Virus record (IMG/VR): IMGVR_UViG_3300008106_000020
Location: 1-30,488 of that record
From: a virus
Length of the DNA: 30,488 bases
Reading direction: 5' to 3' (one strand)
Position numbers and translations under genes: made by a program. Each line of letters starts with the position of its first letter. Positions within the stretch are counted from its first letter, which is position 1. The notes beneath the pieces are model-generated. The model searched no databases and was not told the DNA's origin. It worked only from the letters and a program-made list of their open reading frames with translations. Below are positions 18,449-30,360 of the stretch, piece after piece.

Positions 18449-18588
18449 GATTTCATATCGTTCCATTTTTTGATGAAAGCGGTGATTTCACCTGCTTTAA
18501 TTCGCTTTTCTTCTTTCAATAGCAAATGGTCACGCGCACGCTCAAGCAACGATATTGCTTCATCCATCATTTCTGCTTGTGTGGTCAT
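18445..18588 (-). CDS. 47-aa helical protein, last gene of leftward operon
   Basis: A 47-aa charged helical peptide (MTTQAEMMDEAISLLERARD, ending KKWNDMKS). AGGA lies 7 bases upstream of the ATG. The ATG overlaps, as ATGA (18585-18588), the stop of the reading frame nested in the methyltransferase gene. No motif is recognised. Its stop overlaps the convergent zinc-ribbon gene. A small regulatory or host-targeting peptide is possible. Confidence 0.55.
   Translation of the reverse strand: MTTQAEMMDEAISLLERARDHLLLKEEKRIKAGEITAFIKKWNDMKS
18476..18498 (+). terminator. Possible weak terminator hairpin
   Basis: AAAGC-GGTG, loop ATTT, CACC-T-GCTTT gives a 9-bp stem with one bulged T, followed by AATTCGCTTTTC. 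It lies 28 bases past the end of the rightward operon. The T-tract is poor, so this is tentative. Confidence 0.3.
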
Positions 18589-19436
18589 GCTTCTATCCTA
18601 TCTTTCTGCTGACGTGATAAACGCCGCCGCGACTTTCGAAACGATTGCATTGCCGAAAGCATGGAGGATAGGTGCGCGGTGCTGTACCCCATGAGCCAGC
18701 AAACGAAGGCCGGATTTAACTGGCCGCCGCTTTCCGTCTGGACATTCGAGCCACTCCATACCATCCGCCCAAGGAGCCCGTTCACCGGCACGTTCGGGGT
18801 GAAGCTCCCGTCCTTGTGGTCGCGGCTGGTTGGTGTCGGCCACATCGCCATTGCCGCAAAATCGTTCAGATTGTTTGACCTGTTCGGGTCTGTCGCTCTG
18901 TGCGCTTCCCCGGAGCGAAAATCCCTCGCTTGCGGAGTCGGCCACATCGTCGCCTTCAAAGCCGCTGTCGCTAGGTCGTCCCCCGCGTGGCGGTTCCCCG
19001 TTCTGTTCTCTGACTTCGCCGTGTCCCCCTGCCCATTCAAGCGAGGGGTCGGCCACAAACCATAGTCTGTCCCGCTTGTGGGGCGCACCGACACTACAAG
19101 CTGGCCTAATTTCCGCCCGCGTGGCGTAACCTTCTCTTTCCAGATCATCGGCCACATCATCCCACCAACCGTGGCGTATAGCGGCTGACACTTGCTCTCC
19201 AAACACAACTGGCGGTCGGGATTCACGGATAAGGCGGAACCACACCGGCCACAGGTGGCGCTTGTCTGCTTTGCCTTTTCCTTTTCCCGCCGTGCTGAAC
19301 GGCTGGCAGGGGCAGCTTCCTGTCCAAACAGGTCTATCGTCTGGCCACATCGCAAGTCGCAGGGCAACTGACCACCCGCCGATTCCGGCAAAGAAGTGGC
19401 ACTGTGTGTAGGGTTTAAGGTCATCTGGTCTGACAT
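18585..19436 (-). CDS. Second protein encoded inside the methyltransferase gene, other frame
   Basis: A 283-aa reading frame on the same strand as the methyltransferase gene but in another frame; 839 bases are shared. Its ATG (19436-19434) has AAAGGAG eight bases upstream, and its TGA overlaps the next gene's ATG as ATGA (18585-18588), like most junctions here. The product has TIDLFGQEAAPASRSA near the N-terminus, a Cys cluster (CGRC to CLESKC), three WPTP motifs (LWPTPRL, MWPTPQARD, MWPTPTSRD) and LNPAFVCWLMGY near the C-terminus. I recognise these as recurring in phage and bacterial proteins of unknown function. It may be a genuine overlapping gene or a conserved shadow; the start and stop signals favour real. 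Confidence 0.6.
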   Translation of the reverse strand: MSDQMTLNPTHSATSLPESAGGQLPCDLRCGQTIDLFGQEAAPASRSARREKEKAKQTSATCGRCGSALSVNPDRQLCLESKCQPLYATVGGMMWPMIWKEKVTPRGRKLGQLVVSVRPTSGTDYGLWPTPRLNGQGDTAKSENRTGNRHAGDDLATAALKATMWPTPQARDFRSGEAHRATDPNRSNNLNDFAAMAMWPTPTSRDHKDGSFTPNVPVNGLLGRMVWSGSNVQTESGGQLNPAFVCWLMGYSTAHLSSMLSAMQSFRKSRRRLSRQQKDRIEA

Positions 19437-19545
19437 CTTCAATACTCCTTTCATCAACATCGCCTGGCGCAATCAGCCCGTCTGTTATAAGCTGACGCAG
19501 CATCGCCGCTGCCTTTGGGTCAAACTCGTTGTAATATGCTGTCAT
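18598..19545 (-). CDS. DNA cytosine-5 methyltransferase
   Basis: A 315-aa enzyme from the ATG at 19545, chosen because phage homologues start MTAYYNEFDP; a GTG at 19584 is possible. Motifs: I FFAGIGGWS (51-59, AdoMet site); IV SCPCQPFS with catalytic Cys80; VI FGEQV with Glu117; VIII HKRDRLWFV (156-164); X FGNAI near the C-terminus. Between VIII and X lies a loose segment with repeated VAD motifs, the target-recognition region. It methylates cytosine in DNA, most likely protecting phage DNA from host restriction. No partner endonuclease is seen. The gene is visibly GC-richer than its neighbours and carries a second frame over most of its length. Confidence 0.88.
   Translation of the reverse strand: MTAYYNEFDPKAAAMLRQLITDGLIAPGDVDERSIEDVRPDDLKPYTQCHFFAGIGGWSVALRLAMWPDDRPVWTGSCPCQPFSTAGKGKGKADKRHLWPVWFRLIRESRPPVVFGEQVSAAIRHGWWDDVADDLEREGYATRAEIRPACSVGAPHKRDRLWFVADPSLEWAGGHGEVREQNGEPPRGGRPSDSGFEGDDVADSASEGFSLRGSAQSDRPEQVKQSERFCGNGDVADTNQPRPQGRELHPERAGERAPWADGMEWLECPDGKRRPVKSGLRLLAHGVQHRAPILHAFGNAIVSKVAAAFITSAER
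18837..19158 (-). repeat. Dispersed CGGCCACATC repeats in methyltransferase gene
   Basis: The string CGGCCACATC occurs on the + strand at 18837, 18939 and 19149, a shorter CGGCCACA at 19050, and a variant TGGCCACATCG at 19342. On the coding strand it encodes mostly VAD in the methyltransferase frame and WP in the nested frame. Confidence 0.6.
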
Positions 19546-19559
19546 ATTGTGCGCGCCGC

Positions 19560-19877
19560 TTACCCCGATTTGACGCGCTGCCACCCGTCACCAGTAAAAA
19601 TGTAATGTGATTGTTCGTCCTTGACAAAAAGAACCAGCCCGCGATTCGGCGCGATATAACGCCAGATTTTATCGAAGTATGCTATCTGGCCAGCCTTGCC
19701 AGTCCACGGCCATGCAGGGTTATCCGGTATAATATAAACCGCGCCTGCCACAGGGTTTGCCGGCGGCGTTGCAATGTTTTTGCTGACCGCGCCAATAATG
19801 CTTTTGAATCCAGAACGCCTTGGCACATCAAACACGACGGTATCGATGCGAAACAAAACCTCATTAACGATAGTCAT
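19560..19877 (-). CDS. DUF2793-like protein
   Basis: A 105-aa protein. The ATG at 19877 follows AGGGGGGA, with an in-frame GTG directly before it. The segment PPANPVAGAVYII, then GKAGQIAYFDKIWRYIAPNR and YIFTGDGW, matches the DUF2793 pattern known from phage and gene-transfer-agent tail or fibre proteins, usually as a C-terminal module. Here it is free-standing and encoded in the leftward accessory operon, 14 bases before the methyltransferase ATG. It overlaps the preceding gene by 14 bases. It may be a virion surface or chaperone-like domain; its place among early genes is odd. Confidence 0.68.
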   Translation of the reverse strand: MTIVNEVLFRIDTVVFDVPRRSGFKSIIGAVSKNIATPPANPVAGAVYIIPDNPAWPWTGKAGQIAYFDKIWRYIAPNRGLVLFVKDEQSHYIFTGDGWQRVKSG

Positions 19878-21667: not shown

Positions 21668-21976
21668 TCACACCTCCTTCACAAGCGGTGCGGCAAGCCT
21701 TCGAGCCTCGCCAATAGTTGCCTCGGCCATATCGCCAAGATGTCCTCTGAAATATCCAGCGGCTTGTGTAATGCTCAATGCATCATCAAGCTTCCTAATC
21801 ACCTCCTGCTGCCGCCGGATGATGTCGGCCATGAGTGGGGCTTCTTCCGCAAGGTCGTTATCCTCTTTTGTTTGGCCGCCCTCAGTATAAAGCCATTCAC
21901 TGCCATTCCCTGCTTTCGCAGCAAGCTCCATCACCCGCTTAATATCGGCGGCTAGTTTTTCAGTGTCTGTGGTCAT
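21668..21976 (-). CDS. Hypothetical small helical protein
   Basis: A 102-aa acidic protein behind AAGGAGGA. Features are MTTDTEKLAADIKRVMELAA and IIRRQQEVIRKLDDALSITQ, both amphipathic helices, and a central GNGSEWLYTE strand. The layout resembles accessory Ead-like proteins in early phage regions that contain a tail-to-tail helical pair. The ATG overlaps the end of the pentapeptide gene (ATGA). The function is unknown. Confidence 0.55.
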   Translation of the reverse strand: MTTDTEKLAADIKRVMELAAKAGNGSEWLYTEGGQTKEDNDLAEEAPLMADIIRRQQEVIRKLDDALSITQAAGYFRGHLGDMAEATIGEARRLAAPLVKEV

Positions 21977-22419
21977 ACTTCCTCCTTCTTTTCTCTATGC
22001 GCTTTGCACATGGCAAGAAGCGCGTCTTTATGCGCACGCCAAAAATCCAATGCGCCGTCATGCATATCGGCAATCACTTCGTCATCAAATGATTCCCAAT
22101 CCGCGTGTGTATGGCGCTTGCAACCAATAGCCATAAATCCTTCGGTGATAATAATGTGCCACCTTAATCCTGTAAGTATTACCGGAGATTTGCTTAAAAT
22201 TTCACCGCGCAGATTGGCATCGCGCAGATTGGCATCGCGCAGATTGGCATTGGCATCGCGCAGATTGGCATCGTACAGAGTGGCATAGCGCAGATTGGCA
22301 CCGCCCAGATTGGCATCGCGCAGATTGGTTTTGTTTGCTTCACACGCATGGCGCAAAGATTCATATTCACCATCTATCAATATATCTCCAGTAAATCTGT
22401 TTTTGATAACTACTCGCAT
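21973..22419 (-). CDS. Pentapeptide-repeat protein
   Basis: A 148-aa protein with AGGAGG five bases before its ATG. Residues 32-72 are pentapeptide repeats of A(N/D)L-type, mostly NLRDA, which fold into a right-handed beta-helix. The register is interrupted once by an extra Ala-Asn at 57-58. The C-terminal 70 residues (WHIIITEGFMAIGCKRHTHA, then ADMHDGALDFWRAHKDALLA) form the domain that commonly follows such repeats in phage proteins. Pentapeptide proteins can mimic DNA or act as scaffolds; with only about eight repeats, a DNA-gyrase type role is uncertain. The repeats are near-identical in DNA. Confidence 0.8.
   Translation of the reverse strand: MRVVIKNRFTGDILIDGEYESLRHACEANKTNLRDANLGGANLRYATLYDANLRDANANLRDANLRDANLRGEILSKSPVILTGLRWHIIITEGFMAIGCKRHTHADWESFDDEVIADMHDGALDFWRAHKDALLAMCKAHREKKEEV
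22206..22331 (-). repeat. Eight 15-base tandem units in pentapeptide gene
   Basis: Units of 15 bases (CGCGCAGATTGGCAT on the + strand) run from 22206 to 22331. Units 1-4 are identical and units 5-8 differ by one to three bases. A six-base insertion (TGGCAT, 22251-22256) separates units 3 and 4 and adds two residues without a frameshift. The similarity suggests recent expansion by slippage. Confidence 0.85.
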
Positions 22420-22595
22420 TGCTTCCTCCTATCCGCATGGTTAATCAACACGTCACGCAACCGCCGCTCTGCTTTCGGGCGTGGATGCGTTAATGGTGCA
22501 AGCAGCATCCTGATTTCTTCCGGCGTGATGCGGCTGGCAGCAATGTTTTGTGCCTCGATGTACCCACCAATCGCGTTATCAACTTGCTGGTTCAT
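22410..22595 (-). CDS. 61-aa hypothetical protein
   Basis: A 61-aa basic protein. The ATG at 22595 is preceded by GGAAGGGAAG and overlaps the stop of the 52-aa gene (ATGA). A longer frame to 22727 lacks a ribosome site and would overlap the neighbour. The sequence (MNQQVDNAIGGYIEAQNIAA, then TPEEIRMLLAPLTHPRPKAE) is helical with an Arg-rich end (RRLRDVLINHADRRKQ), so DNA or RNA contact is conceivable. No family is recognised. Confidence 0.55.
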   Translation of the reverse strand: MNQQVDNAIGGYIEAQNIAASRITPEEIRMLLAPLTHPRPKAERRLRDVLINHADRRKQCE

Positions 22596-22750
22596 GATTG
22601 CTTCCCTTCCATCTTTTGTGCATTTGCAATGGCCTCGCGGGTAACAAATCCACGCGCAAGCAATACTTGTTCCAGATCTTTTATGGCGCTTGCCCATTTG
22701 TCTGTTGACTCGCAAAGCTCGGCGCATAACTCAGTTATGGATTTATTCAT
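22592..22750 (-). CDS. 52-aa hypothetical protein
   Basis: A 52-aa reading frame with AAGGGGGG four bases before its ATG and ATGA overlaps at both ends (22747-22750 and 22592-22595). The peptide (MNKSITELCAELCESTDKWA, then LLARGFVTREAIANAQKMEG) is helical with two Cys near the N-terminus. It is part of the unbroken chain of translationally coupled small genes. The function is unknown. Confidence 0.6.
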   Translation of the reverse strand: MNKSITELCAELCESTDKWASAIKDLEQVLLARGFVTREAIANAQKMEGKQS

Positions 22751-23016
22751 TGCACCCCCCTTTGCGTGTTATGCTCTGCAAAGTCGCCATGATAACCGTC
22801 ATCGGTCACGACGTATTTGATGCGATTTACAACTATATCCTTCTCAACATCATAAGCGGCTATAATCACATAATCGCTGCGCTCTTTGTTATCCCTGAAC
22901 TCTTGGTGCTTTTCACCCCACCAATCATCAGCAAATGCTTTCGCGCCCTCTAATGTAGAGGACTCGTCAAGTATTTCGACTCCGTGGTGGTAAACTGTAT
23001 AAATAATGTGATTCAT
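22747..23016 (-). CDS. 89-aa hypothetical protein, first gene after promoter A
   Basis: An 89-aa acidic protein. The ATG at 23016 is chosen because GAGAGG lies upstream; the frame reads back to 23055 without a site. The sequence (MNHIIYTVYHHGVEILDESS, then EGAKAFADDWWGEKHQEFRD and DIVVNRIKYVVTDDGYHGDF) predicts an alpha/beta fold. It is the first product of the leftward operon driven by the 23063 promoter and its hairpin leader. No family is recognised; early position suggests host takeover or regulation. Confidence 0.6.
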   Translation of the reverse strand: MNHIIYTVYHHGVEILDESSTLEGAKAFADDWWGEKHQEFRDNKERSDYVIIAAYDVEKDIVVNRIKYVVTDDGYHGDFAEHNTQRGVQ

Positions 23017-23023
23017 AGTACCT

Positions 23024-23057
23024 CTCGGCTTTATGGATGCGTAATTGCATCGCATGG
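23024..23057 (-). repeat. Leader repeat copy A with hairpin
   Basis: A 34-base element, 29 of 34 identical to 24488-24521. The hairpin GATGC (23036-23040) / GCATC (23047-23051) lies between promoter and ribosome site. Relative to copy B, one stem pair is T-A instead of C-G, a compensatory change. Confidence 0.75.
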
Positions 23058-23062
23058 ATATG

Positions 23063-23090
23063 AATATATATCGTTATTCGTTAGAGTCAA
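23063..23090 (-). promoter_or_regulatory. Promoter A (leftward)
   Basis: On the - strand: TTGACT (23090-23085), 16 bases, TATATT (23068-23063). It overlaps the end of the 82-aa HTH-like gene and feeds the 89-aa gene at 23016 through the hairpin leader. Confidence 0.55.
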
Positions 23091-23322
23091 GAACATACTT
23101 AAAAATTTTATACGAGCACCGTTGATCTGGGTTTGCCTCAAAAAAAGCCTCCCAATAATCCAAGTCTGCTAAAACCTGATGCGCTTTTGATAACACAACA
23201 GCCGGTGCTTCAATTTCACCACGCAACATGCGCTCAAATCTGCTTTGTCGTTCCCAGATAGCATAAGAAAAATCTCTTACGCTCATGCCAGAATCTTCAA
23301 ACAACATGCGTATTGTGTTCAT
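23074..23322 (-). CDS. Putative small HTH-like protein
   Basis: An 82-aa protein starting at ATG 23322, which overlaps the previous stop (ATGA). Residues 10-50 (DSGMSVRDFSYAIWERQSRF, then ERMLRGEIEAPAVVLSKAHQ) have the helix spacing of Cro/XRE-type helix-turn-helix proteins, though the match is weak. The C-terminus (FFEANPDQRCSYKIFKYV) is unrelated to known dimerisation domains. Its 3' end contains the promoter of the next operon. It is a candidate repressor acting on the duplicated palindromes; no direct evidence of binding is available. Confidence 0.5.
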   Translation of the reverse strand: MNTIRMLFEDSGMSVRDFSYAIWERQSRFERMLRGEIEAPAVVLSKAHQVLADLDYWEAFFEANPDQRCSYKIFKYVLDSNE

Positions 23323-23474
23323 CGTACTAAAACCCCTACACTTGCTACAGTCCAGTTATACTTAGCGGCTAACTTGCTGGCGATTATATCAGCTTGGTAT
23401 CTATGCGCCGCGCTAATACGATACGGCTTTTCATGCTGGTGGAAACGCACCACATATGTCTGGCGGCGGATCAT
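23319..23474 (-). CDS. 51-aa basic hypothetical protein
   Basis: A 51-aa basic protein (MIRRQTYVVRFHQHEKPYRI, then SAAHRYQADIIASKLAAKYN) with GGGGGA upstream of its ATG and ATGA overlaps at both ends. A beta-beta-alpha pattern with many Arg/His/Lys residues suggests nucleic-acid contact. No family is recognised. Confidence 0.6.
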   Translation of the reverse strand: MIRRQTYVVRFHQHEKPYRISAAHRYQADIIASKLAAKYNWTVASVGVLVR

Positions 23475-23578
23475 TTTATCCCCCACATTGCTAACCAGTT
23501 AAAGTAAGTTTGCCATGTTTGCGTTTGCACGGTTTGATATTCTTTAAGCCACGCAGACAATAATAAAAGATGGTTCAT
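23471..23578 (-). CDS. 35-aa peptide gene
   Basis: A 35-aa peptide (MNHLLLLSAWLKEYQTVQTQ, ending YFNWLAMWGIK) preceded by GGGGAGG eight bases from the ATG. It starts three bases after the upstream gene's stop and overlaps the next start (ATGA). Four Trp, a Leu-rich start and amphipathic character suggest membrane or protein-surface binding. The function is unknown. Confidence 0.5.
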   Translation of the reverse strand: MNHLLLLSAWLKEYQTVQTQTWQTYFNWLAMWGIK

Positions 23579-23580
23579 GG

Positions 23581-23841
23581 CTATGCCTCCCCGCGTGCTT
23601 TAGTGATTAGATTGCCAATGCTTGCGCGCAGTTTGTCATCGGCGATGTGCGGATGTGCATCCATAAGGCCGTCAACCAATTCATCATGCAGATTCACGCA
23701 CTTGACGATGTGAGCGGCATTATCTTCTGGGCGTCCGACCGGCTGGAAATAAGTAGTGCACGTTGCAACACTATATCCGTTAGCGCACTCAATACCCCTA
23801 TTAAACGCCTTCCACGGTGTTGGTGTGTGTTTGGTAGTCAT
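23581..23841 (-). CDS. TPTPW-motif small phage protein (copy 1)
   Basis: An 86-aa protein. The ATG at 23841 has GGAG eight bases upstream. It begins MTTKHTPTPWKAFNRGIECA and contains EDNAAHIVKCVNLHDELVDG. The TPTPW start and the Asn-Ala...Asn-His...Leu helix recur in unnamed proteins common in phages of Proteobacteria. It shares this plan with the 97-aa product at 24183, so the two are probably old duplicates. The function is unknown. Confidence 0.65.
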   Translation of the reverse strand: MTTKHTPTPWKAFNRGIECANGYSVATCTTYFQPVGRPEDNAAHIVKCVNLHDELVDGLMDAHPHIADDKLRASIGNLITKARGEA

Positions 23842-23852
23842 AATCAATTCTC

Positions 23853-23990
23853 CTAACGATTAAAATTATAATCACAGATTTCAAAACTATGGCCTCTATC
23901 CATACAAGACTGAATATCGGAGGCGTTGATGTAACCAAGTATCAGCATAATTGCAGATATGGCTGCCAGCATAATAAAAGTTTCGCGCAT
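23853..23990 (-). CDS. 45-aa single-span membrane peptide
   Basis: The ATG at 23990 has a perfect AGGAGG seven bases upstream, while the longer frame to 24098 lacks one. The product (MRETFIMLAAISAIMLILGY, then INASDIQSCMDRGHSFEICD) has one N-terminal membrane span or signal anchor and a short acidic tail with two Cys, possibly disulphide-bonded in the periplasm. Its ATG overlaps the previous stop by one base. A superinfection-exclusion or lysis-modulating role is possible but unproven. Confidence 0.6.
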   Translation of the reverse strand: MRETFIMLAAISAIMLILGYINASDIQSCMDRGHSFEICDYNFNR

Positions 23991-24190
23991 TACTTGCCTC
24001 CTAATGCCTGGTGAAAGCTCATAGGTGCCTGATACTGCGCCACGCTGTCCATAAAACGCTGATGTTTGGAAGCGTCTTTCAATATCAACGCGCGACAATT
24101 CTCAGGCGTGTGAATCAATGTCAGAGCCGCAGCAGTCATGCCACTGGCGATGCCAAGAGTGATAAAGGTGCGCTTGATGTGGTTAAACAT
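23990..24190 (-). CDS. 66-aa small membrane/secreted protein
   Basis: The ATG at 24190 has GGAGG seven bases upstream. The N-terminus (MFNHIKRTFITLGIASGMTA, then AALTLIH) has a basic start and a hydrophobic stretch of about 17 residues, like a signal peptide or signal anchor. The rest (RALILKDASKHQRFMDSVAQ) is basic and helical. It is paired with the 45-aa membrane peptide that follows, so the two may act together in the envelope. Which side the tail faces cannot be told. Confidence 0.6.
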   Translation of the reverse strand: MFNHIKRTFITLGIASGMTAAALTLIHTPENCRALILKDASKHQRFMDSVAQYQAPMSFHQALGGK

Positions 24191-24476
24191 TATGCGCCTC
24201 CGCTTTGGCAACGTTAAAAACTTCCATGACTTGTTCCTGAACGTACTGCGGCAATGCTTCCCACGTTTCTGGTGAGATGTTGTCAATCAGCAGCTCAAGG
24301 GCTTCAAGTAGTGGCTTGTGATTGTTGCAGGCGTGGGTGATAAATTCGGCATTTGATTTCCCAACATAACTGGCAACATTGCATCTTGAATAGTGTGATG
24401 AAGGAGATTGTATTGTGTAACCACAACCATTATGGGTGCGGCTTTCTATAGTCCAAGGTGTAGGTGTGTGAGTCAT
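24183..24476 (-). CDS. TPTPW-motif small phage protein (copy 2)
   Basis: A 97-aa protein starting MTHTPTPWTIESRTHNGCGY and containing KSNAEFITHACNNHKPLLEA, the same plan as the 86-aa product at 23581. AAGGA lies seven bases before its ATG. It is the first gene of the operon started by promoter B, just downstream of the hairpin leader. These short proteins are frequent among early phage genes of unknown function. It has a Cys at the repeat centre (HACNNH). Confidence 0.65.
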   Translation of the reverse strand: MTHTPTPWTIESRTHNGCGYTIQSPSSHYSRCNVASYVGKSNAEFITHACNNHKPLLEALELLIDNISPETWEALPQYVQEQVMEVFNVAKAEAHNV

Positions 24477-24487
24477 AAAAAATCCTT

Positions 24488-24521
24488 CTCGGTTTTATGG
24501 ACGCATGATTGCGTCGCATGG
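24488..24521 (-). repeat. Leader repeat copy B with hairpin
   Basis: This is the second copy of the 34-base element. The hairpin GACGCA (24500-24505) / TGCGTC (24510-24515) is perfect over six pairs with a four-base loop. It lies between promoter B and the AAGGA site of the 97-aa gene. Confidence 0.75.
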
Positions 24522-24525
24522 GTGG

Positions 24526-24554
24526 TTTGTAGCATTGGATTTTGGTAGTGTCAA
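24526..24554 (-). promoter_or_regulatory. Promoter B (leftward)
   Basis: On the - strand: TTGACA (24554-24549), 17 bases, TACAAA (24531-24526) preceded by TGC (extended -10). It drives the 24476-23074 operon through the hairpin leader. Confidence 0.65.
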
Positions 24555-24558
24555 GAAA

Positions 24559-24729
24559 TTATTTCATCACAACTTTTTCGCTGCCACACTCAATGCACCG
24601 GCCATTTATTTCTACTAAAGTCGGGATCTGGCTTTCGTCATTCCACATCACAGGCCAGTCGCGGCGGCATTCCAAACAAAGCAACCATTCCCCGTCTATA
24701 ATACGCGGTATTGTCTTAGGTGCTGGCAT
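24559..24729 (-). CDS. 56-aa zinc-ribbon protein
   Basis: A 56-aa protein with two knuckles, Cys18/Cys21 (CLEC) and Cys45/Cys48 (CIEC), giving a four-Cys zinc ribbon. Its reading frame (MPAPKTIPRIIDGEWLLCLE, ending CGSEKVVMK) begins inside the end of the nuclease gene and stops five bases before promoter B. The site ahead of the ATG is weak (GGGTG). It is the last gene of the replication operon; a cofactor of the nuclease or transcription is plausible but unproven. Confidence 0.6.
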   Translation of the reverse strand: MPAPKTIPRIIDGEWLLCLECRRDWPVMWNDESQIPTLVEINGRCIECGSEKVVMK

Positions 24730-25081
24730 TTTGTTTCACCCACTCAACAATTTCCTTCTTTGCTTCGCTCAATCCCTTGGCAACTGCGTAGTGTGTGTTT
24801 TTTGCTTGCAATTTCGGCAAGTAAATTTTCTTATGCCATTCTTCTTGCGAAGGGCGCAAAATGCTATTTCTGCATTTGGTTTTCAGCTCAAGAAAAAGCA
24901 CATGCAAAATCTCATCTTTGCGTGCAAAAATCAGCAAGTCAGTTATTCCAACCATTATTCCCATTTCTATGGAATGCCTGCTATTTTCGTTCAAAGTCGC
25001 CTGCAGTGCATAGTCGGAATAGGTTTTGTAAAACCAATCTACAAGCGCACGCTGTATTGATGCTTCAACACGGGATACCAT
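24716..25081 (-). CDS. VRR-NUC domain nuclease
   Basis: A 121-aa nuclease of the PD-(D/E)XK superfamily, VRR-NUC type. Visible active-site elements are Glu6 (SRVEASIQRALVDWF), Asp48 in GITDLLIF, the Glu65-x-Lys67 pair in FLELKTK, and Gln79 in RPSQEEWHKK. These enzymes cut branched or structured DNA and can act as Holliday-junction resolvases. It overlaps the helicase gene by 17 bases, so the pair probably works together in replication or recombination. The length is typical of a stand-alone VRR-NUC. Confidence 0.85.
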   Translation of the reverse strand: MVSRVEASIQRALVDWFYKTYSDYALQATLNENSRHSIEMGIMVGITDLLIFARKDEILHVLFLELKTKCRNSILRPSQEEWHKKIYLPKLQAKNTHYAVAKGLSEAKKEIVEWVKQNAST

Positions 25082-26654
25082 CGTTCAGATACTCCTCCAA
25101 GGTGGTTTCTGGTTCAGGCCAATGATAATTGATGATGCGCGGCCATTCCTCTCTGTGGTCAACGGTGATGCGCGCTGGCTTGCGGAGTGCTTCCGCCTGC
25201 CATAGCAATTCATCTTCCGTCATATCTCTTGGATCACCAATAACCGCGCCGCGCTCGGTAAAAAATTTCTTTACTTTATCACGCAAAAACCCCTGTTCAT
25301 GATAAGGCAAAAGAAAATCCGCAATCGTGCCATACTTCCCATATCCGCAATAATAACTCACCACAATCATGCGGCTGCCCTTCTTGCTGGTTTTGAATTT
25401 ATATTGCACGTCGGTCACGTCATAGTCGCAGATGTCGCCGCTCAGTTTATACTCCCCGATGTCGGCTTCATATTCATGCGTAACTTTCGCCGTTTCGGCT
25501 GGCGGAAATACATACCCGCAGTCAGGGCATTCCTTCGCCGCTGGCTTTGTAAATTCCTCGCACTCAGGGCATATTTTGCCCTTGTTTTGTTTTGATTCCT
25601 TGCGTGCTTTTTCCCGGTATGGTTCGCCCATGCCGCCATGCTCGGCAAGGTTGCCAGCCATATCCACCAGCAAGCAATTCTTTTTTCCCTCCGCAATACG
25701 CACGCCGCGCCCCATCATTTGTTCCCAGAGCGCTTTGCTTTTGGTAGGCCGTAAACAAAAAATCGCATCCACATTCGGCGCATCAAATCCCACCAGAAAA
25801 ATCTCACAGTTAATCAAATAGCGCACATTGCCATATTCATGCTTGAATTGCGTCACCGCTTCCGCGCGTTCTGCGTCACTGCTTTTTCCGCTAACCATTA
25901 CAGAATCTATGCCATTCAGTTGCAGCGCATCGCGCAGCAACTCGCCATGCCTGACACTCACCGTGAAAATCAAGCAGCTATAACGATTCACGCCATAAGC
26001 CATAATCGCTTTGATTGCAGCCTGAATCAGCGCCGGGTCTTCCATGACTTCGGCAAGCTGGTTTTCAACGTAATCGCCTAGTTTTATCTCCACATGGTCA
26101 AGATTTGGCACGCAATCCATTAGCAGTTTGTTGCTAATAGGCGCCAGATAACCCATCGCCAGCAACGCCGGATAGTTGATTTCGTAAATTACTTCACCCC
26201 ATCCCAGCTTGCCGCCTTTTAAGCGGTAAGGCGTTGCCGTAAAACCGCATATCTTCGCGCGTGGGTGATTGTTTATCAGCTTCCAATACATCCCGTCATC
26301 GGTGTTATTGCTTAGGAACTGGCATTCATCTACAAAAATGTAATTCCAATCGCTCACCACGTCATAAACCGATTGAATCCCTGCAACCGTAATCGGCTTG
26401 CTTATATCTTTCTCGCCCAGGCTGGCAGAATAAAAACCAACCTCGCTTGTAATTTTCTTGCCAGTTTGTTGTAGCAATTCCTTGCGGTGCGCGATAATAA
26501 GCACCCGCGCAGACTTTGCATAATAATCCGCAAGGCTGGCGATAATATGCGATTTACCGCCACCCGTCGCCACGACGACAATAGCAGGAGTGTCATGATA
26601 ATTAAACCATGACACTACTGCATTACATGCGTCTTTTTGGTATTGCCTAAGCAT
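25065..26654 (-). CDS. Superfamily 2 DNA/RNA helicase with zinc finger
   Basis: A 529-aa helicase. Motif I is ATGGGKS (29-35), Ia IAHRKEL, II DECQ (109-112; Gln in place of the usual His), III TATP (139-142), V near FLVGFDAPNVD (286-296), and VI QMMGRGVRI (312-320). A four-Cys zinc module follows (C362, C365, C376, C379). This is the phage DEAD/DEAH UvsW-like or replication-restart type: ATP-driven branch migration or strand unwinding. The ATG overlaps the stop of the DUF669 gene (TAATG) with no obvious ribosome site, so translation is coupled. The C-terminal 130 residues are unassigned. Confidence 0.88.
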   Translation of the reverse strand: MLRQYQKDACNAVVSWFNYHDTPAIVVVATGGGKSHIIASLADYYAKSARVLIIAHRKELLQQTGKKITSEVGFYSASLGEKDISKPITVAGIQSVYDVVSDWNYIFVDECQFLSNNTDDGMYWKLINNHPRAKICGFTATPYRLKGGKLGWGEVIYEINYPALLAMGYLAPISNKLLMDCVPNLDHVEIKLGDYVENQLAEVMEDPALIQAAIKAIMAYGVNRYSCLIFTVSVRHGELLRDALQLNGIDSVMVSGKSSDAERAEAVTQFKHEYGNVRYLINCEIFLVGFDAPNVDAIFCLRPTKSKALWEQMMGRGVRIAEGKKNCLLVDMAGNLAEHGGMGEPYREKARKESKQNKGKICPECEEFTKPAAKECPDCGYVFPPAETAKVTHEYEADIGEYKLSGDICDYDVTDVQYKFKTSKKGSRMIVVSYYCGYGKYGTIADFLLPYHEQGFLRDKVKKFFTERGAVIGDPRDMTEDELLWQAEALRKPARITVDHREEWPRIINYHWPEPETTLEEYLNDGIPC

Positions 26655-27046
26655 TAAAACGGCAAATCCGCTTTATCTGCCGGAAGGTATTTTTTGATTT
26701 CGGTTCGGTCTGCATCATTTTTCTGCACGCCTACCAAAACCCGCAACAAACGCCCTTTAAGCGGGCTTGTTGGCGTTACCGCCCGTCCAGTTGCGTCAGC
26801 GATTCTTTTGATGTTTTGCTTGGCGATATTAGAAGTTGTGGTGTTTTCATGCTTGGTAAGATACCACACTTTGCCGCGCTTGCCTTTGTGCTCTCCTTCC
26901 ACAATTTCAAACTCAGCAACAAGCCCGCGCTCTTTCGAGTCAGGCTCTTCACCAATAATCATTACCTTGTGCTCGCCAAGCGGCAAGCCCTGAGCGTCAT
27001 ACTTCACATCGTCCGTTGAAGTAAAACCATAATAGTCATTTGTCAT
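26654..27046 (-). CDS. DUF669-like protein, putative single-strand DNA-binding
   Basis: A 130-aa protein. The pattern LPLGEHKVMIIGEEPDSKER, then LVAEFEIVEGEHKGKRGKVW and NIAKQNIKRIADATG, matches the DUF669 family, which occurs beside phage recombinases and helicases and is thought to have an OB-like fold. AAGGAGA lies upstream of the ATG. The C-terminus ends in DKADLPF, an acidic-hydrophobic tip of the kind single-strand binding proteins use to recruit partners. It lies between the Sak4-like ATPase and the helicase, so an SSB role fits. Confidence 0.75.
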   Translation of the reverse strand: MTNDYYGFTSTDDVKYDAQGLPLGEHKVMIIGEEPDSKERGLVAEFEIVEGEHKGKRGKVWYLTKHENTTTSNIAKQNIKRIADATGRAVTPTSPLKGRLLRVLVGVQKNDADRTEIKKYLPADKADLPF

Positions 27047-27774
27047 CGTGTAATCTCCTTAATTAAATGGTCATAAGATAACGGGATTTCCTTGTTTAGT
27101 AACATGCGCCCGCCTCCCGTATATGCGGCGCTGCCACCGGCCAGAAAAACCGGACGCGGTTCAGAAGTTTTGCCGTCTTTTGTGACCGCAAAACTGTAAT
27201 CAGCAAAAAGCACAAGATCTGCCCATTCCGTAGCTTTGGCAGCCGTGGCTTTACTCATCTTCAGTTCGTATTTTGAATAAGGGTCTTTCGTTGGCAGGTC
27301 GATTGTTTTAATCACGCTATGAGCAATCAAAAGTGACGGAATGCTTTTCTTTTTATAGATTGCATCCAGGCCACGAAACACGCGCATGACTGCATCGTCA
27401 ACCATCGCCTGCCCAGCGCCATACGCATACGCTTTATGCGCCCGGTCGCTAAGTGGCGCGCCGTGCTCTTTTTCAACTTTGTCCTTCGCCAGCGATTCCA
27501 CCCAATCGAGCGAATCAATTACCAGTCTGCCAGCCTTAAAAGATTCTGCGTCATGGATATGTTTCAGCCACCCCAGCACTTCATCAAACGAATGCAGCGC
27601 AGGCGTCGAACGCACTTCCTTGCCAAGATATTGCAGGCCGTCTTCTACGTTGATAAAAAACGCATCGGGAAACTGTGCAGCAAAGCGTGATTTTCCAATT
27701 TTCGGCACGCCGTAAACCACAATCTTTGATGGCAATTCTTTAGAAGTGCCGGTTTTGATTTCATTAAATTCCAC
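27043..27774 (-). CDS. Sak4-like RecA-fold ATPase
   Basis: A 243-aa ATPase starting at GTG 27774 with GGAG six bases upstream. The Walker A motif is YGVPKIGKS (21-29, Lys28), Walker B is LVIDSLD (84-90), and INVEDGLQYL follows the P-loop as in AAA_24/Sak4 proteins. These phage proteins are RecA/Rad51-core annealing or loading factors for homologous recombination, usually encoded next to an SSB. The neighbours (DUF669, helicase, VRR-NUC) support that. The stop overlaps the next ATG. Confidence 0.82.
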   Translation of the reverse strand: MEFNEIKTGTSKELPSKIVVYGVPKIGKSRFAAQFPDAFFINVEDGLQYLGKEVRSTPALHSFDEVLGWLKHIHDAESFKAGRLVIDSLDWVESLAKDKVEKEHGAPLSDRAHKAYAYGAGQAMVDDAVMRVFRGLDAIYKKKSIPSLLIAHSVIKTIDLPTKDPYSKYELKMSKATAAKATEWADLVLFADYSFAVTKDGKTSEPRPVFLAGGSAAYTGGGRMLLNKEIPLSYDHLIKEITR

Positions 27775-28144
27775 GTTTATCTCCTACCAGTTGAATGTGA
27801 GTGTTTTCTTTCATGCTGTACCAATTCGCTTTCGGCTTCTCGATTGCAATTTTGCGCTTGTCAGGCTCGCGCTTGATGCGTGCATATTCATCCGGGAATT
27901 CGCCGGACACATCCACCACTTGCGTTTTTTTAATGCGGAAGTTTTCGGTTTCAATGCAACCATTGCCAATCATGTAATCAATGGCGGCCTGTTCGCATGA
28001 CTCAAGATAAGATTTTGCACAATTCATTTTCATTTGCAAAATCATCATTTGAGCCTTCAGCTCACGCACGTTTTCCCTCGCGGATAAAACTTTATCAACC
28101 AGAAATTTTTCTTCATCGTGTTCGTTTTCGTTTGTCATAGTCAT
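27764..28144 (-). CDS. Gp157-like protein, first gene of replication operon
   Basis: A 126-aa protein with AAGGA five bases before the ATG at 28144. A long coiled coil (residues 10-60, including LKAQMMILQMKMNCAKSYLE) is followed by IDYMIGNGCIETENFRIKKT, then FPDEYARIKREPDKRKIAIE, as in the siphovirus Gp157 family found in phage replication clusters. The family's role is unclear; resistance or recombination-mediator functions have been suggested. It overlaps the Sak4-like gene and is the first gene after the divergent promoter. Confidence 0.75.
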   Translation of the reverse strand: MTMTNENEHDEEKFLVDKVLSARENVRELKAQMMILQMKMNCAKSYLESCEQAAIDYMIGNGCIETENFRIKKTQVVDVSGEFPDEYARIKREPDKRKIAIEKPKANWYSMKENTHIQLVGDKRGI

Positions 28145-28159
28145 TTGTCCTTTCGTTAT

Positions 28160-28188
28160 TTGTCAGTTGACAAGTGGCACAATATAGC
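28160..28188 (+). promoter_or_regulatory. Rightward early promoter
   Basis: TTGTCA (28160-28165), 17 bases, TATAGC (28183-28188). It drives the ribbon-helix-helix and primase genes. It overlaps the opposing promoter at 28179-28207, so both cannot be filled at once. Confidence 0.5.
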
Positions 28189-28209
28189 ACACCATGCGAA
28201 GTGTCAACT
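28165..28209. promoter_or_regulatory. Putative operator: AGTTGACA / TGTCAACT inverted repeat
   Basis: AGTTGACA (28165-28172) and TGTCAACT (28202-28209) form a perfect 8-bp inverted repeat overlapping or touching both -35 elements. TTGTCA-GT-TGACAA (28160-28173) is a second, tighter palindrome sharing one half-site. Confidence 0.5.
28179..28207 (-). promoter_or_regulatory. Leftward replication-operon promoter
   Basis: On the - strand: TTGACA (28207-28202), 17 bases, TATTGT (28184-28179), with TGCTATATT overlapping. It initiates the 28144-24559 operon. Confidence 0.65.
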
Positions 28210-28226
28210 TTTTTTTGAGAGGATTT

Positions 28227-28367
28227 ATGTCGAATGACGAGAGGCTAGTTACTTACGTTTCTGGCGAGCTGTGTAAATGGGTAAAGCGCGAGGCCAAAAA
28301 ACTGGGGATGACGGAAAGCACATTTATACGCTTTTTGATTCTTCAATTCAAGAAAAATGAGGCTTAA
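28227..28367 (+). CDS. 46-aa ribbon-helix-helix (Arc/CopG-type) regulator
   Basis: A 46-aa protein with GAGAGG before its ATG. An N-terminal strand (ERLVTYVSGEL), a helix (CKWVKREAKKLGM), then TESTFIRFLILQFKK reproduce the ribbon-helix-helix fold of small Arc/CopG repressors, whose strand pair enters the DNA major groove. It is encoded right beside a divergent promoter with inverted repeats, the usual place for an autoregulator. The last 11 bases overlap the primase frame. It is a likely switch or copy-control repressor; DNA targets are inferred. Confidence 0.72.
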   Translation: MSNDERLVTYVSGELCKWVKREAKKLGMTESTFIRFLILQFKKNEA

Positions 28368-30360
28368 TGTGTCATCCCTTGAAAGCGCATTGCGTTCAGC
28401 AGGCTTGAATTTCACCTCCCTTGTCATGGATGGCGAACTGCATCGTTGCCCCACCATTGCAAAACCGCGCAAGGAAAACGGTTGGTATATAATATATGAA
28501 GGCGGAGCGGCTGCGTGCTATGGCAACTGGGAAGAAGGTGACGCATCGCATACATGGCGCGGTGAGAATGTAAGCGACGAAGTATATTCGCGGATTCGTT
28601 CAAGTGTTGCGCGCTTGAAAGAACAGCGCGAAGCCGAACAAGCAATTCTTGCGGATACTGCGTTAGAATTTTATGAGTCATGCGCTCGCACGGGTTACAG
28701 CGACTATCTCAACCGTAAAGGCGTGCAATCTCACGGCCTTCGCTATGACGGAAACGCGCTTATCATGCCGCTACAGGACTCCACCGGCAAAGTTTGGAGC
28801 TACCAGAAAATTTATGGCAATGGTGACAAGTATTTTCTGCAAGGTGGCCGCGTGCGCGGCTGCTATTACATTATAGGCGCACCCACTTCAAAAGTAATTG
28901 TCTGCGAAGGTTTCGCCACCGGCGCGACGATTCATGAAGAAACCGGAATCCCTGTTATTGTCGCGCTTAACGCTGGCAATCTTAAAACCGTATGCGATTC
29001 ACTTCCTTTCCGCGATATTACTATTGCTGCAGATAATGACGCAAATGGCGTAGGTGAAAAAGCCGCAAAGGAATCAGGTTATAACTATGTAATGCCTTCC
29101 ACCACAGGCGATTTTAACGACATCCCCCGCGAGTCAGTGCGCGGTTATTTCGTGCAAGAAAAAAAGGCAGATGAAAACAGCATTGTGGTTCACGGCCTGG
29201 TCGGGGAGATTGCCGATTGGATAACCTCCACCGCAATAAGGCCACAGCCGCTTTTATCGCTTGCGGCCGCTCTTTCCTTTGTTGGTATGATAAAAGGCCA
29301 CCGGGTGCGCGGTAAAACCGACCTTAGAACGAATCTCATGATTCTTGCTATGGCACCTACCGGCGGTGGCAAAGAACACCCCCAGAACGCTATAAAACGG
29401 CTTGTCAAGGCGTGCGGCCTGCAAAAGCACCTTATGGGAGAGCCTGTGAGCGGCGCTGGGTTTTTGCACGCTTTGCAAAAATCTGGTAACGTTGGCTATT
29501 TGGTCATGGATGAAGTCGGGCGCTATATTGGAAACCTTAGCAGCGCAGGCGCAGGCGTTCACCAGCGCGAGATTTTGGATTATATGATCAAAACATTCAG
29601 CTCTGCTAATTCCATTCTAATGGGCAGGGAAAAGGCAGCAGGCGCTAAAGAGCCGCGAATTGACATCGAAAACCCGCATTTTTGTTGTTATGGTTCCACG
29701 GTGCAAGAAAAGTTCCGCGATGCTTGCGGCAGTGGTGAGATTGTCGATGGGTTTCTCAACCGCTGGATTGTGCTAGAATCAAAGGAGAGGCCAGACCGTC
29801 AGAAAAAGGTGAAATTCACCCCGCCGCCTCAGTCGATTATTGATAAAGTTTTGGCAATAACTTCGCATAGCCCATATGATTCTTACGGCGCACCCCACCC
29901 GGAGGAAATAGAGTTCACCCCGGAAGCGTGGGAAATTTATGACGCATACCGGGACAACGTGGATAAATTGGTTAAAACAACTCCCTACCCTCAAAATCAG
30001 CTTATAAGTCGCGCGCCGGAGCATATCGAGAAAATAGCTCATACAATTTCTGAAGACGGCTGCACCGGCATCTACGACCTGCGCGCCGCGATTAAAATTG
30101 TGGAATTCTCAAATAAATGCATTCTGCGCTTTGCTGGCATGATTAGCGACAACGTCCAGGAGCGTGATTTTGTGAAAGTGCGCGAGATTGTAAAAGAGAT
30201 GGGAACGGTGCAACGATCCACACTGCTTCGTCGGTGTCAGTTCGTCCAAGGTGGCGCAAAACGCTTTTCTGAAATCATGGCGGTTTTAATTGATGAAAAT
30301 ATAGTGGCAGAATCAGAAAATGGCAGAAAAGCCACATATCGCTGGATTGCTTCAAAATAG
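28357..30360 (+). CDS. Toprim primase fused to DUF3987-like helicase
   Basis: About 667 aa. ATG 28357 is used, but GTG 28369 has the better site (GAGG six bases upstream); they differ by four residues. Residues 20-70 resemble a primase N-terminal zinc-like region. The Toprim core has Glu184 (VCEGFATG), Asp226/Asp228 (AADNDANG) and Asp252/Asp255 (GDFND). A RecA-like helicase half follows: Walker A APTGGGKEHP (Lys339, with Glu instead of Ser/Thr), Walker B YLVMDEVGRY (Asp385/Glu386) and an arginine-finger-like GFLNRW. It primes and unwinds DNA at the fork. It is encoded opposite to the recombination operon and behind the RHH regulator. Confidence 0.87.
   Translation: MRLNVSSLESALRSAGLNFTSLVMDGELHRCPTIAKPRKENGWYIIYEGGAAACYGNWEEGDASHTWRGENVSDEVYSRIRSSVARLKEQREAEQAILADTALEFYESCARTGYSDYLNRKGVQSHGLRYDGNALIMPLQDSTGKVWSYQKIYGNGDKYFLQGGRVRGCYYIIGAPTSKVIVCEGFATGATIHEETGIPVIVALNAGNLKTVCDSLPFRDITIAADNDANGVGEKAAKESGYNYVMPSTTGDFNDIPRESVRGYFVQEKKADENSIVVHGLVGEIADWITSTAIRPQPLLSLAAALSFVGMIKGHRVRGKTDLRTNLMILAMAPTGGGKEHPQNAIKRLVKACGLQKHLMGEPVSGAGFLHALQKSGNVGYLVMDEVGRYIGNLSSAGAGVHQREILDYMIKTFSSANSILMGREKAAGAKEPRIDIENPHFCCYGSTVQEKFRDACGSGEIVDGFLNRWIVLESKERPDRQKKVKFTPPPQSIIDKVLAITSHSPYDSYGAPHPEEIEFTPEAWEIYDAYRDNVDKLVKTTPYPQNQLISRAPEHIEKIAHTISEDGCTGIYDLRAAIKIVEFSNKCILRFAGMISDNVQERDFVKVREIVKEMGTVQRSTLLRRCQFVQGGAKRFSEIMAVLIDENIVAESENGRKATYRWIASK

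What the first reader, a model, noticed from the sequence alone, without database searches (positions are those of the whole stretch)
23024..24554. Duplicated promoter-leader with covarying hairpin
Seen: copies at 23024-23057 and 24488-24521 are 29/34 identical. Each sits between a TTGAC-type promoter and the Shine-Dalgarno site of the first gene of a leftward operon. The hairpin stem changes T-A to C-G with both partners mutated, which implies selection on structure or on a two-fold operator. Inference: a shared regulator or RNA element coordinates two operons of small early genes.
Basis: partly seen in the sequence, partly recalled or inferred. Interest (0 to 1): 0.7.

Follow-up and report, generated by a model that had tools for sequence, protein, structure and literature searches.

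The report
Shared hairpin leader in phage mRNAs
A group of uncultured phages starts many of its messenger RNAs with the same kind of small RNA hairpin, whose letters change between copies while its folded shape is kept, so the fold itself appears to be under selection, probably to protect or regulate those messages.

Summary
The copies at 23024-23057 and 24488-24521 are 29/34 identical (about 2e-4 such pairs expected by chance), each between a sigma70-like promoter and the start of a leftward gene. The finding is larger than reported: I found 12 distinct leaders in six phage genomes (uncultured IMG/VR contigs), heading different small genes. All share one layout: promoter, about 6 nt, a 22-23 nt hairpin at the predicted +1, a purine-rich Shine-Dalgarno tail, ATG 39-43 nt from the hairpin start. 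In a hand-made structural alignment 94 of 96 stem cells pair, and six of eight positions change on both sides. A covariance model built from nine copies found three unseen ones at 30-34 bits; best background 18. Eight copies carry a 5' bulged base: outer pairs form 24/24 in the RNA register, 0/24 as a DNA dyad. This favours an RNA element over a two-fold DNA operator. The apex GC-RAUYAN-GY is conserved while the lower stem drifts. No Rfam family matches. Most likely it is a standard 5'-terminal leader protecting these mRNAs and supporting translation; its apex may also be a protein site. Function is inferred: start sites, decay and binding are unmeasured.

The parts
23063..23090 (-). Predicted promoter A: -35 TTGACT (23090-23085), 16 nt, -10 TATATT (23068-23063); the -35 overlaps the 3' end of the HTH-like gene
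   Evidence: consensus scan; start site not mapped
23033..23055 (-). Leader hairpin A: AUG-C(bulge)-GAUGC-AAUUAC-GCAUC-CAU, at the predicted +1
   Evidence: R2 46.8 bits; compensated pairs
23021..23026 (-). Shine-Dalgarno-like GAGAGG inside the conserved tail (consensus AACCGAGAGGG in most copies)
   Evidence: sequence; tail alignment
22747..23016 (-). First gene behind leader A, 89 aa, unknown function
   Evidence: ORF; 63% identical homologue in L059 without a leader
24526..24554 (-). Predicted promoter B: -35 TTGACA (24554-24549), 17 nt with TG extended -10, -10 TACAAA (24531-24526)
   Evidence: consensus scan; start site not mapped
24497..24519 (-). Leader hairpin B: AUG-C(bulge)-GACGC-AAUCAU-GCGUC-CAU, at the predicted +1
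   Evidence: R2 52.4 bits; compensated pairs
24484..24490 (-). Shine-Dalgarno-like GAGAAGG inside the conserved tail
   Evidence: sequence; tail alignment
24183..24476 (-). First gene behind leader B, 97 aa, phrog_1273 family
23074..23322 (-). Small HTH-like (XRE-like) protein just upstream of leader A; homologues at the same place in G001 and G002. Associated, not shown to act on the leader

Best explanation
It is a reusable promoter-leader cassette of one group of phages. The RNA that begins at the promoter folds at once into a hairpin at its extreme 5' end, followed by a purine-rich Shine-Dalgarno tail. Shown here: the RNA fold is conserved and its base pairs are replaced in compensated fashion across 12 leaders in six phage genomes; the leader is tied to (predicted) promoters and to start codons at fixed spacing. 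Inferred: because the stem begins at the predicted first nucleotide, the message has almost no unpaired 5' end, so host 5'-end-dependent decay (RppH, RNase E) is hindered and these short mRNAs live longer and are well translated, in the manner of the E. coli ompA 5' stem-loop or the stabilising leader of T4 gene 32. The conserved apex (GC-RAUYAN-GY) suggests that a protein may also recognise the hairpin, which would let the phage tune the whole set together.
For: 12 leaders, stem start 5-7 nt after the predicted -10 and 39-43 nt before ATG in all (taking the 17-nt spacing where two readings compete); 94/96 stem cells paired, six of eight positions with two-sided changes, 0 of 200,000 arm shuffles reach it, confirmed on a MAFFT alignment; three held-out hits by a model that had not seen them against 17-18 bits in background; bulged register 24/24 against 0/24 and seven G-U cells; ribosome site largely free in the folds; genes behind the leaders are mostly unrelated.
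Against: No transcript start is mapped and no half-life measured. A pure end-protector would not need a conserved loop and closing pairs. The host and its decay enzymes are unknown. In the window the large leftward operon with the replication genes (promoter near 28207) lacks this leader.
Confidence: 0.5

Rival explanations
1. RNA operator: a phage or host protein binds the conserved apex and represses, activates or antiterminates the set of messages together, with the lower stem serving only as a holder.
For: Apex GC-RAUYAN-GY conserved (four columns invariant in 12) while the middle of the stem drifts with pairing kept. Parallel: in the T4/RB69 gene 43 operator the top 10 bases of a hairpin about 40 nt before the start codon are identical (PMC3014915).
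Against: No binding protein identified. Exact placement at the predicted +1 is not required for an operator. No gene common to all leaders stands out as an autoregulator, though contigs are partial. The hairpin does not cover the ribosome site.
Confidence: 0.35
2. Two-fold DNA operator: a dimeric DNA-binding protein (for instance the HTH-like protein) binds the palindrome just downstream of the promoter and represses both operons.
For: Position next to the promoter suits repression; an HTH-like gene is conserved just upstream of one leader in three genomes.
Against: Outer pairs form only with a bulged base (24/24 against 0/24 without it); seven G-U cells; the arms differ in sequence from site to site while pairing is kept. 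A DNA-binding protein needs conserved half-site letters, not pairing.
Confidence: 0.08
3. Not functional: a recently duplicated promoter region whose palindrome is a coincidence.
For: Leaders of one genome share tail sequence, so copies have spread within genomes. Hairpins of this shape are common by chance.
Against: Pairing is kept in 94/96 cells through many substitutions across six genomes, and a structure model found unseen leaders.
Confidence: 0.03

Closest known systems
5'-terminal mRNA-stabilising stem-loops (E. coli ompA, papA) and the stabilising 5' leader of T4 gene 32 mRNA
   Same: A stem-loop at or near the extreme 5' end of the message, upstream of a free ribosome site
   Different: One structure reused on many unrelated small phage genes, with a conserved apex and drifting lower stem; stabilisation not measured here
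T4/RB69 gene 43 (DNA polymerase) translational operator
   Same: Hairpin about 40 nt before the start codon; top 10 bases conserved and lower stem variable
   Different: There a single gene is autoregulated by its own product and the operator reaches into the ribosome site; here many different genes carry the hairpin and no binding protein is known
MS2-type coat-protein operator
   Same: Stem with a 5' bulged base and a loop that contains AUUA or AUCA in many copies (from memory of the MS2 operator)
   Different: The bulge lies five pairs below the loop, is C or A, and is absent in four copies; no coat protein of that kind in a dsDNA phage. Resemblance only
lambdoid nut/boxB and HK022 put sites
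   Same: Short RNA hairpins near the start of phage early transcripts
   Different: No boxA and no room for one; a single hairpin directly at +1 followed by the ribosome site

Membership tests
5'-terminal mRNA stabilisers (ompA type) | Stem-loop at the extreme 5' end with few unpaired nucleotides before it | tested here: inconclusive
   Stem starts 5-7 nt after the predicted -10 in all 12, so at the predicted +1; start sites are not mapped
5'-terminal mRNA stabilisers (ompA type) | Stem prolongs mRNA life in the host | not testable with these tools
   Needs an experiment
T4 gene 43-type translational operator | Hairpin upstream of the ribosome site with conserved apical bases | tested here: met
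   Apex GC-RAUYAN-GY, lower stem variable; hairpin start to ATG 39-43 nt
T4 gene 43-type translational operator | Operator of one gene, bound by that gene's own product | tested here: not met
   Leaders precede different, mostly unrelated small genes, so it is not an autoregulatory site of one gene; binding itself not testable
MS2-type coat-protein operator | Bulged purine two base pairs below an ANYA tetraloop (from memory) | tested here: not met
   Bulge is five pairs below the loop, C in four copies, absent in four
lambdoid nut site | boxA upstream of boxB in the transcript | tested here: not met
   The hairpin starts at the predicted +1, leaving no room for a boxA before it
Two-fold DNA operator | Symmetry of double-stranded half-sites, conserved between sites | tested here: not met
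   Outer half-sites 0/24 symmetric without the bulge; arms differ between sites
Intrinsic terminator/attenuator | Hairpin followed directly by a run of U | tested here: not met
   Hairpin is followed by AUANAACCGAGAGGG or similar, no U run
Any Rfam 15 family | Covariance-model match | tested here: not met
   No match up to E = 5 over 22000-28600

The most novel reading that the evidence does not exclude
The hairpin is the shared RNA operator of a phage-wide post-transcriptional regulon: an unidentified protein reads the apex GC-RAUYAN-GY at +1 of many accessory-gene messages and controls their translation or decay together.
Probability: 0.3. Interest if true: 0.7.

Novelty: new variant of a known kind. 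Interest (0 to 1): 0.5.

Why it matters
Structured 5' leaders of dsDNA phages are mostly known one gene at a time in model phages. Here one leader type is kept on many unrelated small genes, in both operon directions, in a group of uncultured phages, and base-pair replacement shows that the RNA fold is what is kept. That gives a sequence tag for these phages' transcription units and a list of candidate host-takeover genes, and makes it directly testable whether phages use a common 5' structure to shield or steer their messages.

Tried and rejected
The strict DNA pattern of the hairpin in 84,980 bacterial and archaeal genomes gave 34 hits; by flanking sequence none looks like a promoter leader, and 30 of the loci served as a control. 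The promoter-plus-tail pattern in viral contigs recovered the leaders of the L074 contig and gave four chance contigs without the hairpin. L014 (TTGACA-17-TACAAT followed by a weak hairpin, 12.8 bits) could be a remote member; not counted. Phage records with related terminase or capsid genes gave no hit above 12.5 bits. Contigs with distant homologues of the leader-B gene have no leader. blastn of the region against 50,697 phage records found nothing. The helicase found no close relative in 399 genomes of one bacterial order, so no prophage or host clue. N4-like hairpin promoters set aside (own knowledge): the -35 and -10 elements lie upstream of the hairpin here. Shine-Dalgarno occlusion: the ribosome site stays largely free in the folds. 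The structure search for the HTH-like protein gave only weak XRE-like matches (best E 0.05).

Full report
What was claimed and what is there. This is exact: copy A at 23024-23057, copy B at 24488-24521, no third copy in the window (next best 20-21/34), and about 2e-4 such pairs expected by chance. On the minus strand each follows a sigma70-like promoter (A: TTGACT-16-TATATT; B: TTGACA-17-TACAAA with a TG extended -10) and precedes GAGAGG or GAGAAGG and an ATG. A hairpin of this shape alone is not rare in 30 kb (about 12 per strand by chance), so two copies would not prove structural selection.

Relatives. The helicase gene next door led to related contigs. Near-identical contigs carry the same two leaders. 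L006 (88% identical helicase) has copy B with the outer core pair G-C changed to A-U on both sides. L009 (89% helicase, 38 kb contig G001) has promoter-hairpin leaders before a homologue of a small membrane-like protein and between the HTH-like homologue and the next gene, plus a third before its replication genes. L074 (37 kb contig G002) has two and L008/L088 one after its primase gene. A model R1 built from these nine then found three leaders it had not seen, at 34.0, 29.8 and 29.7 bits: two after the primase gene of L007 and one in G002. The next hit in that search scored 18.4. In 240 kb of bacterial loci chosen because they match the hairpin pattern, the best score was 17. With R2, built from all 12, the leaders score 34-52 bits. 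The best hit in six phages with related structural genes was 12.5, and in 399 genomes of one bacterial order 27.7, not at a leader (stricter filters were used there).

Structure. In a hand-made structural alignment of the 12 distinct leaders, 94 of 96 stem cells are standard pairs, against 71 on average when whole 3' arms are shuffled between sequences (0 of 200,000 reach it); six of eight positions have changes on both sides. The count on the MAFFT alignment gives 95.7% paired, six of eight pairs with two-sided changes, and 0/500 shuffles reaching the percentage paired or the covariation score; sliding the partner drops pairing to 18-46%. These shuffles do not remove relatedness. Two of the leaders (L009_3, L088_1) were accepted partly because they fold, which biases the count a little; the three held-out hits were found by sequence and structure together, and the tail contributes to their scores.

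RNA rather than DNA. Eight leaders have one extra base (C or A) on the 5' side. With it bulged, their three outer pairs form 24/24; without it, as a DNA dyad would require, 0/24. Seven cells are G-U pairs. The lower stem differs between sites in sequence while pairing is kept. A dimeric DNA-binding protein explains none of this.

Anatomy. The stem begins 5-7 nt after the predicted -10 in all 12 (taking the 17-nt spacing where two readings compete), that is, at the predicted first nucleotide, and 39-43 nt before ATG. The apex is 5'-GC R A U Y A N G Y-3' as a consensus: the G and C of the 5' arm, one U of the loop and the first G of the 3' arm are invariant, while the middle of the stem carries as little as 0.4-0.5 bits per column. 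The genes behind the leaders are small and mostly unrelated: a phrog_1273 protein, a pentapeptide-repeat protein, a small membrane-like protein and several orphans. In three genomes an HTH-like gene precedes the A-type leader while the gene behind it differs. Leaders occur in both transcription directions around the replication genes.

Mechanism. Shown: a conserved, compensated RNA hairpin tied to predicted promoters and to start codons. Inferred: because it starts at +1 it leaves almost no unpaired 5' end, the geometry that hinders 5'-end-dependent decay; 5' stem-loops of ompA and papA (cited in PMC3997798) and the stabilising leader of T4 gene 32 (cited in PMC8948821) are the known parallels. 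I put this at about 0.5. The conserved apex is not needed for that and argues for a protein contact, as in the T4/RB69 gene 43 operator, where the top 10 bases of a hairpin about 40 nt before the start codon are conserved (PMC3014915); I put a dedicated RNA operator at about 0.35. Both may be true together. No Rfam family matches, and I found no description in the papers searched.

Limits. All genomes are metagenomic contigs with unknown host. Promoters are consensus matches. No transcript data exist here. Covariance-model E-values are rough.

Noticed in passing
window 18585-19584 (-): Two long ORFs (18585-19472, 295 aa, and 18598-19584, 328 aa) overlap for about 875 nt in different frames of the same strand, and each matches its own PHROG family of DNA methyltransferase-annotated proteins (phrog_1008 E 1.6e-33; phrog_363 E 4.8e-74); both frames also have homologues in contig G001 at one overlapping place. 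A candidate dual-coding gene pair.
   Followed up: partly
window 24183-24476 and 23581-23847 (-): Two proteins starting with HTPTPW, both phrog_1273, look like paralogues; only the first has the leader.
   Followed up: no
window 21973-22419 (-): Pentapeptide-repeat gene with in-frame 15-nt DNA repeats; its homologue in G002 has its own hairpin leader, while here it lies further down the operon of leader A.
   Followed up: partly
window 28140-28210; L006 about 1599; L008 about 3208: Divergent promoter region with TTGTC/GACAA dyads between the leftward replication operon and a ribbon-helix-helix-like gene (28194-28367); looks like a true DNA operator, unlike the leaders.
   Followed up: no
L007:261-299 (-), L085:15122-15160 (-), L088:7559-7595 (+): Three leaders of other phages share a different promoter look, TTGCAATC then about TG(C)NATAA, which may mark a second promoter class.
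   Followed up: no
L005/L006 after the helicase gene; L007:4234-4734 (+): HNH-homing-endonuclease-like ORFs inserted between replication genes that are adjacent in the window (by eye from the translations).
   Followed up: no
L014:6841-6873 (-): TTGACA-17-TACAAT followed by ATGCTAAGCAATAACGCAGGCAT before a small gene in another phage contig: same layout, weak score (12.8 bits), possibly a remote member.
   Followed up: partly
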